Assembly (NCBI GenBank): GCA_024277065.1 | Contig: JAJRVY010000234.1 | Span: 1-46,431 of the forward strand | Source: Planctomycetota bacterium | GTDB lineage: Bacteria; Planctomycetota; JAJSAM01; JAJVHW01 | Direction: 5' to 3' | DNA: 46,431 nucleotides | Shown here: positions 14,454 through 20,677 of the stretch, piece by piece | How positions within the stretch are numbered: the first letter of the stretch is position 1 | Layout of the letters: every line of letters starts with the position of its first letter | Notes under the pieces: generated by a model | Database searches by the model: none | The model's input: only the letters and a program-made list of their open reading frames with translations | Told to the model about the DNA's origin: nothing | Made by a program: the position numbers and the translations under genes

Positions 14454-14476
14454 ATCGCGCGCCGCCCCCGCGTTTC

Positions 14477-14505
14477 TCTTGTCCGCACCTTCTGAGAAGG
14501 TGTTC
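14477..14505. terminator. Inverted repeat between convergent genes; resembles the repeat-element ends
   Basis: CACCTTC (14486-14492), loop TGA, GAAGGTG (14496-14502): a 7-bp perfect hairpin between comEC and the converging micro-lipoprotein gene, so it could end transcription from both sides. The flanking bases extend a 17/20 match to the terminal repeat found at 17794-17813 and 20004-20023 (CTCTTGTCCGCACCTTCTGA here). The site may therefore be a remnant of that element, or the element's ends may themselves be terminator halves. Confidence 0.55.
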
Positions 14506-16885: not shown

Positions 16886-19078
16886 TCACCTCGCGGTGAC
16901 GCGCCGTCCCGCGCACTGCCGGAGAGCAGCCTCAACGAGCGCCGGGAGGTGGCCGCGGCGCTCGTCGTGGTCGGCGACCTCCCCGCAGCGGACGCGGCGC
17001 GTCTGCTGGAGAACGTCGAGCCGTTCGAGGTCTCCGACGTGCTCGCGGCCGTGGGCTGCGACACGGCACGCGCCGGCGACGACATGGCGCTGCGGCTCTG
17101 GTCGATCGTCCTGTCCGACGAGAGCCGCTCGAGCGCCTCGTGTGCCTTCCGTGCGCTCGAGCGCGCGAAGGCCATCGACCGGCAGGACATTCCGCGCCTG
17201 CTGATGTCCGTGGAGAAGCACCAGATCGGCGTCTTCGTGCTCGCCGACCTCTGCCGGGATTCGACTGCCGCGCTTCCGCGACTGCTCCAGTTGCTCGCGC
17301 AGGGTCACGACGTGGCGTGGCCACTGGCGATGATGGGACCGCGTGCGAAGGCTGCGCTTCCTCGTCTCGTCTTCGAAGCACGCGACCAGGACTCCCACGC
17401 GTCGTTCGCCGTGGGCGCCATCGGCGCAGCCGGTGTGGAGCCTCTGCGCCGAGCGCTCGACGGCCAGTACGCGGTGCTCGCCACGTCCGTCATCGAGGAG
17501 GTCCTCGGCGGCGTTCGCGACACATCGCAGTGGCGCACGGACGCGCACGTGGACGCCGCCTGCCGCGGCTACCTCGCGCTCCTGATCGGCGGGCGCCGGG
17601 CGAGTTCGAGCCGTGGCTGCCACAGCTCTCCGTCCACGAGGACCCGGACGTCCGATGGGCTGCGGCGAGGCTCTCGCCATGAGGCGGGCGGGCACCGTGG
17701 ACGAGCGGAACTGCGGCGCGCGACTTGCGCCGCTGGACGCTGCGACAATCCCAGGCTCAGATCCGCGCAAGTCGCGTGACCGGCGCCGCGTTCCTTTTGT
17801 CAACACCTTCTGAGCCTTGCCGATGCTCACCAGCATCGCGAGTGTGCCCCCCTCGGGCGTGTGCGCGAGCGTCACGAGCCAACTGCCCGGCTCGGCGCGC
17901 ATCGTCCGGGCGTGGCGGCGCACTTCGGGCAGGTCAATCGTGACCGGCAGGCCGCTTGCGAGCTGCGTCGTGAAGACACCCCACGTCGGCACGGTCACCC
18001 AACTGATCTCCATCTGACCGCCATCGACGAACGTCGCGGAGATCCCCGATCGCAGGGTCTCGATCCGCGGCTCGGCGATCGGCAGGTCCCACTCCTGCTC
18101 GTAGTCGGCGACGTAGGCCTCGTCGAGCGACATCCGCATCGTGGCACCCGGCACATGGCGCGACGTCAGCGACATGCCACGCAGGAGCCGCGCAGCGGCC
18201 AGCCCGTAGCGCTGCCCGAGAGCCGCGTCCAGCACCTCGCCGAGGGGAGCCTCGGCGTCCAGGACGATAGCATCGACCTGGACGCGCAGGTCCTCGCCGG
18301 CCGTCGCGAGCCAGTCCCGCAGCGCGAACTCCGCGCCTCCGTCCACCGCGAAGTCCTGCACGTCCGCCGCGTCCACGCCCAGGAACATCTCCCGGGAACG
18401 GTCCTCGAAGTCGGGGACGACCACGTCCGCGGGGACCACGCGCACGTGCAACGCCACGGCTCCCTCGTCGCTGCCGAGCACCGCCAGGCGCGTCCACGAT
18501 CCCGGCGTCACGCGCCGCACACCGGCGACTTCGCTCGACGTCCTCTTCGGGAGCTGAACCGTCACCGGTTCCCGGGTCGAGATCACCAGGTTGCGAGTCG
18601 GGATGGGCCGCAGGAGCTCCGAGACACGCGCCCGGTACGAGAGGACGGCGGCGTCGCCATCCGCAGCGACGCACACCTCCAGCACGACGCCACTCTGCAG
18701 CATGCCCACGATCGGATCGACGAGGTAGTCGTCGCCGCTGAGTTCGATCTCGAAGTTCTCGACGTAGGCAGTCTGGTTGATCACCGTGACGTTCGCTCGC
18801 CGGCGCGCGTACACGGTGATGCGTGGCGCCATCAGCACATCCCCCTTCGCGCCCACGAGCCGCGTCTCGATGCCGAACGCCTGCGCACCGCGAGCGCTCA
18901 CGGCCATTGCGGCTTCGCGACGCTCCGCCGCCGCCGGGAGAGTGGCGACGCGGAACAGGGGATCGATCCGGTCGCGTCGATCCGGTGTCCCGGAAGTACC
19001 GGCACATCCGACGAGCCCCAGGAAGACGGGAACGATCAGTAGTTTCCGAATCGGTTTCGGCTGAACGATGTCGCGCAC
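16886..19078 (-). CDS. Secretin-like lipoprotein with lost natural C-terminus
   Basis: GTG at 19078 with a near-ideal GGAGGTGA site. Signal peptide with lipobox LVGC (Cys 25). The middle resembles the C-terminal domain of secretins and planctomycete secretin-like proteins: 'RANVTVINQTAYVENFEIEL', 'LVDPIVGMLQSGVVLEV', then 'FTTQLASGLPVTIDLPEV' and 'TPEGGTLAMLVS'. Genuine sequence ends near residue 422. From 17813 on, the frame enters the repeat element (QKVLTKGTRRRSRDL) and then runs antisense through the HEAT remnant to a stop at 16886. The last 300 or so residues are therefore probably not a real domain. Function in an outer-membrane pore or pseudopilus system is inference. Confidence 0.6.
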   Translation of the reverse strand: MRDIVQPKPIRKLLIVPVFLGLVGCAGTSGTPDRRDRIDPLFRVATLPAAAERREAAMAVSARGAQAFGIETRLVGAKGDVLMAPRITVYARRRANVTVINQTAYVENFEIELSGDDYLVDPIVGMLQSGVVLEVCVAADGDAAVLSYRARVSELLRPIPTRNLVISTREPVTVQLPKRTSSEVAGVRRVTPGSWTRLAVLGSDEGAVALHVRVVPADVVVPDFEDRSREMFLGVDAADVQDFAVDGGAEFALRDWLATAGEDLRVQVDAIVLDAEAPLGEVLDAALGQRYGLAAARLLRGMSLTSRHVPGATMRMSLDEAYVADYEQEWDLPIAEPRIETLRSGISATFVDGGQMEISWVTVPTWGVFTTQLASGLPVTIDLPEVRRHARTMRAEPGSWLVTLAHTPEGGTLAMLVSIGKAQKVLTKGTRRRSRDLRGSEPGIVAASSGASRAPQFRSSTVPARLMARASPQPIGRPGPRGRRAVAATARTRPAPADQEREVAAAGGVHVRVRAPLRCVANAAEDLLDDGRGEHRVLAVERSAQRLHTGCADGAHGERRVGVLVACFEDETRKRSLRTRSHHRQWPRHVVTLREQLEQSRKRGSRIPAEVGEHEDADLVLLHGHQQARNVLPVDGLRALERTEGTRGARAALVGQDDRPEPQRHVVAGACRVAAHGREHVGDLERLDVLQQTRRVRCGEVADHDERRGHLPALVEAALRQCAGRRVTAR
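16916..17682 (+). pseudogene. HEAT-like repeat protein remnant with frameshift
   Basis: The frame from about 16916 encodes helical repeats (for example 'REVAAALVVVGDLPAADAARLL', 'LAMMGPRAKAALPRLV', 'ASFAVGAIGAAGVEPLRRAL') of the HEAT/Armadillo type. No start codon with a ribosome site is visible; a GTG at 16949 is internal to the repeat pattern. Near 17595-17605 the repeat signal jumps to another frame, which continues as GEFEPWLPQLSVHEDPDVRW and stops at 17682. Loss of the N-terminus plus a frameshift points to a decayed gene, though a sequence error at the shift is possible. A half copy of the repeat element begins 5 bp after the stop. Confidence 0.6.
17687..17813 (-). repeat. Half copy (A) of the inverted-end structured repeat
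   Basis: Read on the minus strand from 17813, about 127 bases match copy B (19783-19909) with roughly nine differences. The end repeat CTTTTGTCAACACCTTCTGA is at 17794-17813. The internal 12-bp stem CGCGACTTGCGC / GCGCAAGTCGCG is perfect in this copy. The second half of the element is absent; the HEAT remnant begins instead. It sits at the 3' side of the secretin-like gene, in the same strand sense as that gene. Confidence 0.85.
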
Positions 19079-19189
19079 GGGTCACCTCCGAGGAGCACGA
19101 GAGTGCCTGCACGCTCTCACGGCGACATCACCCACCCGTCACTCCGGGATCACGTCCCCGTCCGCGCCGCGTCACGTACGATCCCCGGC

Positions 19190-19783
19190 ATGGAAATCGT
19201 GGCCAGCGACGTCAAGGGCCGGGACGCCTACCGGCTGCTCATCGCGTGTCTCGTACCGCGCCCCATCGCGTGGGTGAGCACCATGGACCTCGGGCAACGC
19301 GTCAATCTGGCGCCATTCAGCTTCTTCGGCGGCGTGACGACGGCGCCGCCGATCGTCATGGTCAGCGTCGGCCGCCGCCGCGGCGCGCGCAAGGACACGG
19401 CGCGCAACCTGCTCGTCTCCCGCGAGGCGGTGGTGCACATCTGCGACCGGCCGCTGGCCGAGAAGATGGTCGCGACCTCCGCCGACGTCGATCACGGGAT
19501 CGATGAGTTCGAGCTGGCGGGTCTCACCAAGACCGCGAGCACCGACGTGCGGCCGCCGCGGGTCGCCGACGCGGCGATCGCCCTGGAGACCAGGCTCGAG
19601 CGCCACATGGAGATCGGCGACGGCCCGAACGACGTGTTCCTGCTCGAGGTCGTGCGCTACCACCTGCGGGACGACGTACTGGTGGACGGTCTCCCGGACC
19701 CGGCGGCGCTCGCGGCGGTCGGCCGGCTCGGCGGCGCGGCCTACTGCGACACGTCGGCGCCGTTCGACGTGTCGCGCCCGTGA
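19190..19783 (+). CDS. Flavin reductase-like (FMN-binding split-barrel) protein
   Basis: 197 residues from the ATG at 19190. The motif order fits the flavin reductase-like family: 'LIACLVPRPIAWVSTMD', 'NLAPFSFFGGVTTAPPIVMVSVGRR', 'KDTARNLLVSREAVVHICD', 'DEFELAGLTKTAS'. Members bind FMN and either reduce flavins for partner monooxygenases or act as oxidoreductases; no partner is adjacent. There is no ribosome site, but TACGAT lies 7 nt before the ATG, so a leaderless transcript is possible. Its TGA forms the first bases of repeat element B (TGAGAAGG). Confidence 0.88.
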   Translation: MEIVASDVKGRDAYRLLIACLVPRPIAWVSTMDLGQRVNLAPFSFFGGVTTAPPIVMVSVGRRRGARKDTARNLLVSREAVVHICDRPLAEKMVATSADVDHGIDEFELAGLTKTASTDVRPPRVADAAIALETRLERHMEIGDGPNDVFLLEVVRYHLRDDVLVDGLPDPAALAAVGRLGGAAYCDTSAPFDVSRP

Positions 19784-20021
19784 GAAGGTGTTGACAAGAG
19801 GAACGCGGCGCCGGTCACGCGACTTGCGCGGATCTGAGCCTGGGATCGTCGCAGCGTCCAGCGGTGCAAGTTGCGCGCCGCAGCCCCGCTCGTCCGTGGA
19901 GCCCGCCGGACGGCGTTGCGCTCGCTCGATGACCGCGGCAGGGGAGTCACGTTCACGACCGCGCCTTGCCGGCAGGCTCCACGAACAAGCCGACGCTCCT
20001 TTTCTTTTGTCAACACCTTCT
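19783..20021 (+). repeat. Complete copy (B) of an inverted-end structured repeat
   Basis: Ends are AGAAGGTGTTGACAAGAG (19783-19800) and its complement at 20004-20021, differing at one base in 18. Two long internal stems follow: 19818-19829 with 19864-19875 (12 bp, two G-U), and 19895-19909 with 19969-19983 (15 bp, one mismatch). It begins at the flavin reductase stop. There is no transposase and no clear target duplication. It could be a MITE-like element, a REP/BIME-like repeat, or a 3' structured RNA. Confidence 0.85.
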
Positions 20022-20188
20022 GACGCGCGCGACGGATCGCTCCCCACGGCCGTGGAATCCGTGACGTGGATCGCTCGGCACCGTTGGATGGCGGCTGCGC
20101 CGCGCACGTCGCGGGCGCACGGATGAGCCGCGCAAGGGTTGTGACTCCGGTCACGACGCCCGACCGAGAACAGGAGTAGCGTGTTCCC

Positions 20189-20677
20189 ATGAGCGACGAC
20201 AAGCCCTGGAGCGAGAAGACCGCCCGCGACGTCATGCTGACCGACGTCGTCACGTGTTCGTACGCCGCACCCCTCTCCGAGGTCGAGCGGCTCCTCGTGG
20301 AGAACCGCATCAGCGGGATGCCGGTCGTGGACGAGGCCGGACACGTCGTCGGCGTCGTCTCCGTGAAGGACCTCATCGAGCGCTATGCCGAGGATCCCGA
20401 CGCCCGTCCGCGCCGCGGCCACGGCTACTACCACCTCTCCCTCGAGGATATGGACGACGAGGACTTCGAGGCGTTCTCGCTCCCGGAGGAAGGCGAGGAG
20501 ACGGCAGAGACGCTGATGACCGCCGAGATCTTCGCCGTCGGCGCCGACTCTTCGCTCCCCGAGGTCGCCGCCGCGATGACCGGCAACCGCGTCCACCGTC
20601 TGCTCGTGCAGGACGGCAACAAGTTCGTCGGGATCGTCACCACGCTCGAGGTTCTCGGAGCCGTCGCCGCGGGCTGA
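20189..20677 (+). CDS. Paired CBS-domain protein
   Basis: 162 residues made of two CBS motifs: about 10-70 ('ARDVMLTDVVTCSYAAPLSE', 'ISGMPVVDEAGHVVGVVSVK') and about 105-160 ('VHRLLVQDGNKFVGIVTTLE'). An acidic linker separates them (SLEDMDDEDFEAFSLPEEGE). Such stand-alone pairs bind adenine nucleotides and modulate partner proteins in the cytosol; the partner is unknown. A TAGCGT box lies 6 nt before the ATG, so a leaderless start is possible; an AGGAG lies 11 nt upstream. A hairpin terminator follows. Confidence 0.9.
   Translation: MSDDKPWSEKTARDVMLTDVVTCSYAAPLSEVERLLVENRISGMPVVDEAGHVVGVVSVKDLIERYAEDPDARPRRGHGYYHLSLEDMDDEDFEAFSLPEEGEETAETLMTAEIFAVGADSSLPEVAAAMTGNRVHRLLVQDGNKFVGIVTTLEVLGAVAAG

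What the first reader, a model, noticed from the sequence alone, without database searches (positions are those of the whole stretch)
19783..20021. Repeat of about 240 bp with 18-bp inverted ends and two long internal stems, no transposase
Copy B has ends AGAAGGTGTTGACAAGAG / complement (17/18), a 12-bp stem (19818-19829 with 19864-19875) and a 15-bp stem with one mismatch (19895-19909 with 19969-19983). A second, half copy lies about 2 kb away (17687-17813) at about 93% identity. Both sit at the 3' side of a gene in the same strand sense. This matches no standard element I can name; it could be a MITE, a REP-like repeat or a structured RNA.
Basis: seen in the sequence. Interest (0 to 1): 0.75.

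Follow-up and report, generated by a model that had tools for sequence, protein, structure and literature searches.

The report
Jumping hairpin element with exchangeable ends
This 239-base repeat is one of at least forty related sequences in one planctomycete genome, has the same three bases duplicated on both sides, is likely moved by a borrowed transposase, and has a folded centre that recurs across the phylum while its ends differ from lineage to lineage.

Summary
The genome has at least 40 places matching the repeat (only 40 of 164 candidates were scored), 21 of them full length or nearly so. Four other genomes of the same family carry homologues; in three of them full copies keep the 238-240 bp length at about 70% identity. 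Complete copies are flanked by a direct TNA duplication in a CTNAG site: the middle base agrees in 30 of 42 copies, 13.7 expected. The locus is empty in a same-genus genome. So it is a MITE-like non-autonomous transposon. Its helices covary without an overall excess of G-T over A-C, which favours a DNA palindrome over an RNA. A ~80-nt hairpin core matches in 36 of 294 Planctomycetota genomes, mostly inside inverted ends of unrelated sequence about 42 nt from it. Two chimaeras show exchanged ends. In one genome core elements share their ends with an IS5-family insertion sequence; no partner was found in the window's own genome. A new variant of a known kind.

The parts
19783..20021 (+). Complete element (type A ends); strictly 19784-20020 between TNA duplications
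19781..19783 (+). Left copy of the 3-bp target duplication TGA, also the stop codon of gene 19103-19783
20021..20023 (+). Right copy of the target duplication TGA
19783..19803 (+). Left terminal inverted repeat (helix P1, 5' arm)
20001..20021 (+). Right terminal inverted repeat (helix P1, 3' arm)
19818..19828 (+). Helix P2, 5' arm (extra hairpin; the shorter ~164-bp relatives have no room for it)
19865..19875 (+). Helix P2, 3' arm
19888..19911 (+). Helix P3 outer stem, 5' arm
19968..19990 (+). Helix P3 outer stem, 3' arm
19899..19982 (+). Phylum-wide hairpin core (model R1, 82.2 bits)
17687..17811 (-). Truncated copy (element positions 1-125, 93%), one end kept and followed by TGA at 17811-17813
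14462..14503 (.). Remnant: type A end (- strand) joined through TGA to a second end (GAAGGTGTTCA)
19103..19783 (+). Neighbour gene, flavin reductase-like (PF01613), ends in the left duplication
20189..20677 (+). Neighbour gene, CBS-domain protein (PF00571)

Best explanation
The 239-bp repeat is a non-autonomous DNA transposon of the MITE kind, flanked by a direct TGA duplication at a gene's stop codon, likely moved in trans by an IS5-family-type transposase that would act on its inverted ends, and it carries a hairpin core that recurs in elements with unrelated ends across Planctomycetota. Shown: dispersed copies, direct TNA duplication, empty locus in a relative, covarying helices, a conserved core at a near-fixed distance from the right end, and chimaeras with exchanged ends. 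Inferred: a transposase binds the ends and pastes the element into CTNAG sites; insertions in a TGA or TAA stop codon leave the gene readable because the duplication keeps the stop, which would explain why many surviving copies sit there. The arms of the palindrome are likely kept identical at the DNA level, by selection for paired ends or by copying of one arm from the other. The core, with its nearly invariant and poorly complementary GCGTTGC / GCGCCTTGC sides, is likely a DNA hairpin recognised by a protein (transposase or host) that helps the element move or persist, so that it has been kept while the ends were changed to suit different transposases. The last point is the least certain.
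For: At least 40 distinct places in the own genome (41 rows, one being the other arm of a listed place; 40 of 164 candidates scored), 21 full or nearly full. 76 type A ends against 6 for the reversed control; 48 type B ends against 0. Target duplication in G000-G004 copies: same middle base in 30 of 42, 13.7 expected, 0 of 20,000 shuffles as high; complementary in 3 of 42. Empty locus: the matches to the two flanking genes lie 115 bp apart in G001, 422 bp in the window, with no element between. Structure on 24 copies: 93.0% of cells paired, shuffles 82.4 +/- 0.5; 155 cells changed on both sides, shuffles 44.9; slid versions 29-46% paired. Core in 36 of 294 genomes. Of 71 core matches examined 59 have an inverted repeat scoring 12 or more around them, and in 53 of these the right arm ends 38-52 nt from the core; at 300 random centres 21 and 1. 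Core identity 0.58 against 0.355 for the ends over 276 pairs of 24 elements. Partner: an IS5-family IS in G011 (NF033580, 192 bits, cut-off 110) has right end GAGCCTATCTCAGTAGGC and TTA/TTA flanks; core elements L212 (exact) and L211 (one base off) of that genome have that end. An IS of the same NCBI family in G142 has TAA/TAA flanks. A 3-nt insertion site is given as a feature of the IS1031 group of IS5 (passage of PMC2516522).
Against: No partner with the window's ends was found in G000-G004: the one DDE_Tnp_1 protein of G000 is of the IS701 family and has no such end nearby; an IS1634-family frame in G000 C49 has no type A or B end nearby either; reading the end lists gave no two ends at IS distance; PF13340 has no match in G000 and NF033580 only one below cut-off. 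G052, with 59 ends, shows no IS-sized pair of otherwise unpaired ends. So the partner evidence is one genome, and there the two core elements do not themselves have clean TNA duplications (L212 TTC/TTA; L211 none). A third NF033580 IS (G179) shows only TA on both sides. Elements in G044 and G052, and perhaps G235, do not show a direct TNA flank; the flank was counted only in G000-G004. 12 of 42 copies lack an identical middle base (one, L006, had wrong coordinates). The empty-site breakpoint cannot be aligned to the base. Matches in G142, G150, G190 and G239 have no inverted repeat and may be chance, and 7 of the 36 genomes were not looked at further. In helix P3 G-T exceeds A-C, 42 to 21, mainly through two pairs. 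8 of 27 sites lie within an open frame of over 100 high-GC3 codons once the element is taken out, so some copies may interrupt genes, or antisense frames mislead there. Protein binding to the core is not tested.
Confidence: 0.75

Rival explanations
1. A structured non-coding RNA gene or cis-acting RNA that happens to be multi-copy; the helices are kept because the transcript folds.
For: Strong fold and strong covariation; 15 of 30 complete copies directly follow the stop codon of a long frame; in helix P3 G-T exceeds A-C, 42 to 21, and one apical pair varies as T-G, T-A, C-G as an RNA wobble would.
Against: Over all helices G-T and A-C are about equal (60 v 54 cells, distinct pair types 20 v 30; 17 v 14 phylum-wide); P1 has more A-C (23 v 10); without two P3 pairs P3 is 13 v 21. 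Copies abutting a gene lie in both orientations (9 left, 7 right). Direct TNA duplications. No Rfam family reached its gathering score.
Confidence: 0.12
2. A REP/REPIN-like palindrome moved by a Y1 (RAYT) transposase through single-stranded DNA.
For: Palindromic, high copy, mostly DNA-level pairing; single ends and two-ended forms of 50-76 bp occur.
Against: Direct 3-bp target duplication, long terminal inverted repeats, no terminal GTAG or CGTC tag. RAYT genes were not searched for.
Confidence: 0.04
3. An ordinary MITE family in which each IS lineage independently left its own deletion derivative; the shared core is a relic or a common insertion target and has no role.
For: Two-ended forms of about 50 bp without the core exist, so the ends may suffice; ends such as AGAGCCTGAGCAAGAATCCC recur in several genomes and may mark one IS lineage.
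Against: The core is absent from the one partner IS found (no R1 match in L263), so it is not IS-derived there; its stems change on both sides across the phylum and it keeps its distance to the right end (53 of 59); two chimaeras show ends exchanged around one interior.
Confidence: 0.25
4. A host-useful repeat, such as a transcription terminator or mRNA-stabilising palindrome placed after stop codons.
For: 10 of 19 own-genome complete copies and 5 of 11 in relatives lie exactly in the stop codon of a long high-GC3 reading frame, against 3 of 40 control CTNAG sites.
Against: Purifying selection against insertions inside genes predicts the same; no fixed orientation; the locus is empty in a same-genus relative.
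Confidence: 0.12

Closest known systems
Bacterial MITEs (Correia/NEMIS, RUP, ERIC/IRU; review PMC2229807, abstract and passages seen)
   Same: Short, no transposase gene, terminal inverted repeats, target duplication, long stem-loop when folded.
   Different: The passages describe elements mostly with TA termini, A+T-rich and under 200 bp; here TNA in CTNAG, G+C-rich, mostly 160-320 bp, and the interior is better conserved across a phylum than the ends.
IS5 family (NCBI model NF033580, Pfam PF13340)
   Same: In G011 the core elements share the terminal repeat of an IS of this family, which has TTA on both sides.
   Different: The element codes for no transposase, and its core is not in that IS.
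Eukaryotic SINEs with a shared highly conserved domain (CORE, V, Deu), incl. V domain in the MER6 MITE (PMC6887750, abstract and passages seen)
   Same: A conserved central domain shared by elements of otherwise different origin, with parts that fit different partners.
   Different: Those are retroelements (or a mariner MITE) of animals; this is a bacterial DNA element with inverted ends. A likeness, not a relation.
bcr1 of Bacillus cereus (recalled; only a search listing seen)
   Same: Recalled as a mobile repeat of a similar size with a conserved predicted structure.
   Different: Other host phylum; nothing of it was tested here.
REP/REPIN with RAYT (PMC3733652, abstract and passages seen)
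   Same: Dispersed palindromes, in Planctomycetes among others.
   Different: REPs are described as 20-40 bp, most with a GTAG or CGTC tag; this element has long inverted ends and a target duplication.

Membership tests
MITE | Short, without a transposase gene | tested here: met
   239 bp; complete copies 238-241 bp, so frames shift; three ORFs through the element have no Pfam match
MITE | Terminal inverted repeats | tested here: met
   18-21 bp; helix P1 93.2% paired over 24 copies
MITE | Target-site duplication | tested here: met
   TNA, 30 of 42 with the same middle base, 13.7 expected
MITE | Many dispersed copies | tested here: met
   at least 40 places in 4.44 Mb
MITE | Presence/absence at orthologous loci | tested here: met
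   absent between the same two genes in G001; one locus tested, breakpoint not alignable to the base
MITE | Ends shared with an autonomous partner in the same genome | tested here: inconclusive
   met in G011; not found in G000 or G052
IS5 family | DDE transposase gene between the ends | tested here: not met
   239 bp; no Pfam match in ORFs through it
REP/REPIN | GTAG or CGTC tag at one end, no target duplication | tested here: not met
   ends GA(A/G)GGTG, direct TNA duplication
REP/REPIN | Y1 (RAYT) transposase in the genome | not tested
Structured RNA family | Match to a described family | tested here: not met
   no Rfam family at gathering score in 17500-20200; two weak microRNA matches below it
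Structured RNA family | Excess of G-U over A-C in helices | tested here: inconclusive
   overall none: 60 v 54 cells, 17 v 14; by helix 10 v 23, 8 v 10, 42 v 21, the last mainly from two pairs. No positive control was run
Structured RNA family | Transcript | not testable with these tools
   no expression data

The most novel reading that the evidence does not exclude
The unit of selection is the core, not the transposon ends: an ancient protein-binding DNA hairpin of about 80 nt that has persisted across Planctomycetota by trading its terminal inverted repeats and so hiring one transposase lineage after another. It would be the bacterial DNA-transposon counterpart of animal SINEs with a shared conserved domain.
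Probability: 0.35. Interest if true: 0.8.

Novelty: new variant of a known kind. Interest (0 to 1): 0.62.

Why it matters
MITEs are usually defined by their ends: the ends are conserved because the transposase reads them, and the interior is free (recalled). Here it is the other way round over a phylum. That makes a general question testable: can a non-coding element change its transposase by changing its ends, and what does a transposon gain from a conserved DNA hairpin in its middle? It also gives a simple reason why such elements are found at stop codons (a TNA duplication of TGA or TAA leaves the gene intact), and several contigs of this MAG break at a copy.

Tried and rejected
Structured RNA: not favoured, for lack of an overall G-U excess, although covariation is strong and P3 by itself leans to G-T, 42 v 21, 29 of the 42 from two pairs. 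No positive control with a known RNA was run. On re-reading the per-helix numbers I raised this rival from 0.10 to 0.12 and lowered the main reading from 0.76 to 0.75.

REP/RAYT: rejected on target duplication and end tags; RAYT genes not searched.

Partner in the window's genome: looked for by end patterns, DDE_Tnp_1, PF13340, NF033580 and NF033559. None found. In G235 an IS1634 transposase (L246) lies beside an end like that of core element L199, and I first took it for a partner (notebook); the end faces away from the gene, so the claim is dropped. The IS1380 element L233 of G235 has long inverted ends but no TNA duplication, and none of the core elements seen in G235 has those ends. The IS1182 protein L238 lies beside two 56-bp two-ended remnants, not inside them.

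Other phyla: the pattern scan of genome contigs gave 22 stretches, 11 in Planctomycetota MAGs and 11 elsewhere. The core model had no match at the pattern sites of those 11, and elsewhere in them only matches with E above 0.07, so I treat them as chance. The same pattern found nothing in viral contigs; blastn found nothing in plasmids with one core or in phages with the window element. Other phyla were not searched with the model.

Stop-codon targeting as an active preference: 10 of 19 own copies against 3 of 40 control sites, but purifying selection predicts the same, so not claimed.

Rows chosen or dropped: alignment A1 takes 22 of the 34 copies listed, plus L109 and L034; left out were L041 and L043 (truncated), L006 (wrong coordinates) and nine similar copies. 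The 38 cores of A3 were picked by hand; matches without a visible hairpin (L166-L168) were not put in. One search counts all 42 listed copies, L006 included. One search counts all 71 matches given to it: 23 of the loci and 48 of the 60 stretches; the other 12, and L148, are cut by contig ends; L143-L147 (own family) and L172 were not given.

Papers: PMC2516522, PMC2229807, PMC6887750, PMC3733652, abstract or passages only. The other papers were seen as search listings; one search listed none. The listings showed no paper that I recognised as describing this element; that is not proof that it is unpublished.

Full report
WHAT IS THERE. The ends and stems are at the stated places: ends 17/18, long stem 14/15, short stem 10 Watson-Crick pairs plus 2 G-T. 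The fold exceeds all 200 shuffles as RNA. A third remnant, two ends joined through TGA, is at about 14462-14503. Three ORFs that run through the element have no Pfam match.

COPIES. The own genome (G000, 4.44 Mb in 362 contigs) has 41 blastn rows at 40 distinct places. Only 40 of 164 candidates were scored, so this is a lower bound; on the other hand some pieces at contig ends may belong to one copy. 21 are full length or nearly so. Of 58 other genomes searched by blastn 5 match: G001-G004 of the same family and G029 with 35 bases only. Full-length copies at about 70% identity and 238-240 bp occur in G001 (same genus), G003 and G004, and a 275-bp form in G002. Contigs of equal length in named records identify G001, G003 and G004 as the Planctomycetota MAGs Dive100_bin1.14, Bin_16R and OFTM316.

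MOBILITY. Complete copies read, with exceptions, C-TNA-[GA(A/G)GGTG...CACC(T/C)TC]-TNA-G. The middle base is the same on both sides in 30 of 42 copies from G000-G004, 13.7 expected by shuffling, none of 20,000 shuffles as high; it is complementary in 3 of 42, so the flank is a direct duplication, not a further arm of the palindrome. In G001 the matches to the same flavin-reductase and CBS genes lie 115 bp apart with no element, against 422 bp in the window. Mobility is thus shown by comparison; movement itself was not observed.

SITE. In the window the left TGA is the stop codon of the flavin-reductase-like gene. Ten of 19 own-genome complete copies and 5 of 11 in relatives lie in the stop codon of a reading frame of at least 120 codons with GC3 of at least 0.83, against 3 of 40 control CTNAG sites (1 of 22 in the window, 2 of 18 in loci). 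Both orientations occur (left 7 and 2, right 4 and 3). Selection against insertions inside genes is enough to explain this. Eight of 27 sites lie within an open frame of over 100 high-GC3 codons once the element is taken out; whether these are genes was not checked.

STRUCTURE, AND AT WHICH LEVEL. On A1 (24 copies from five genomes) 67 pairs in three arms (P1 the terminal repeats, P2, P3) are 93.0% paired; 155 cells are changed on both sides against 44.9 in shuffles; sliding partners by 1-3 columns gives 29-46% paired. The structure was chosen from folds of these sequences, which favours it on cells paired. Within the same pairs G-T occurs in 60 cells and A-C in 54, distinct pair types 20 and 30. 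By helix it is 10 v 23 (P1), 8 v 10 (P2) and 42 v 21 (P3); two P3 pairs give 29 of the 42, the rest of P3 is 13 v 21, its outer stem 5 v 11. On 38 phylum-wide cores (A3) it is 17 and 14. A transcript under selection should favour G-U on its strand (recalled; no positive control). I read this as pairing held mainly in DNA; a role of the apical part as RNA is not excluded.

THE CORE. Types with different ends in the same genome share the P3 part. Model R1, from 25 such cores, matches 36 of 294 Planctomycetota genomes at E <= 0.001, 21 of 154 among the better ones. I examined 71 matches: 59 have an inverted repeat scoring at least 12 around the core, and in 53 the outer end of the right arm is 38-52 nt from the core; at 300 random centres the numbers are 21 and 1. 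Counting genomes: 25 have at least one such match (24, G000), 4 were examined without one (G142, G150, G190, G239), 7 were not examined. In G155 and G208 the inverted repeat is an extension of the core's own stem. Many short forms span 160-175 bp, core plus about 42 nt on each side; the window's type has an added hairpin P2 on the left. The sides GCGTTGC and GCGCCTTGC are nearly invariant, while the apical and outer stems covary.

THE ENDS. Over 276 pairs of 24 elements the core is 0.58 identical and the first 20 nt of the ends 0.355 (0.46 with the best shift, shuffled 0.405). Two own-genome copies are chimaeras. L024 has type B ends on both sides (18-19 and 19-20 of 21; type A 13-14) but a type A P2 region (67-71 of 82; type B 46-49); its P3 is about equally near to both. 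L029 has type D ends around a type A interior, with TCA on both sides.

PARTNER. In G011 an IS5-family IS (288-aa frame, PF13340 + PF01609, NF033580 at 192 bits) has the right end GAGCCTATCTCAGTAGGC, a degenerate left end with 12 perfect bases, and TTA on both sides. Core element L212 of that genome has that end exactly, L211 with one base changed; the flanks of L212 are TTC/TTA and those of L211 show no TNA duplication. R1 has no match in this IS. Another NF033580 IS, in G142, has TAA on both sides; one in G179 shows only TA. No partner was found for the window's own ends or in G052. G044 and G052 elements do not show the direct TNA flank.

READING. A MITE superfamily with a conserved DNA-hairpin core and exchangeable ends. 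The nearest likeness is the animal SINEs that share a highly conserved domain between unrelated heads and tails, one of which also spread inside a MITE (PMC6887750, abstract and passages). Bacterial MITEs as reviewed in PMC2229807 (abstract and passages) fit in anatomy; the passages seen do not describe a core shared between different ends. Novelty in print rests on the searches in one open-access library only.

Noticed in passing
L071 1500-1553 (G000 C135), L099 289-342 (C44), L101 1501-1551 (C88), L092 1501-1576 (C10): Two-ended forms of 50-76 bp with little or no interior; the C88 one has a type B left end and a type A right end, flanked by TGA on both sides.
   Followed up: partly
L004 866-1033, L012 1332-1499, L019 1331-1498: Second family (type F, 168 bp, AGGGCCCGCGCAGGAATA ends) sharing the core, directly abutting type A copies; an end plus its duplication recreates a CTNAG-like target, which may be why elements pile up end to end.
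   Followed up: partly
L048 1144-1419 (G001): A type F element with about 108 extra bases, apparently in the loop of the core.
   Followed up: no
L078 1485-1608 (G000 C173): A type B element with a type A end placed just inside its left end, an apparent nested or recombined copy.
   Followed up: no
G000 contigs C13, C214, C157, C205, C80, C309: Contigs begin or end at a copy of the element, so it fragments the assembly and a partner IS may be lost there.
   Followed up: no
L233 1060-2779 (G235): IS1380-family element with 27-bp perfect inverted ends CTCAGAGGCCGTGACC...; CTNAG-like ends but no direct TNA duplication.
   Followed up: partly
L200-L206 (G052): A type of about 160 bp with 59 ends in the genome and flanks mostly CT(C/A)...(G/T)AG that do not look like a TNA duplication; its target rule is unexplained.
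   Followed up: partly
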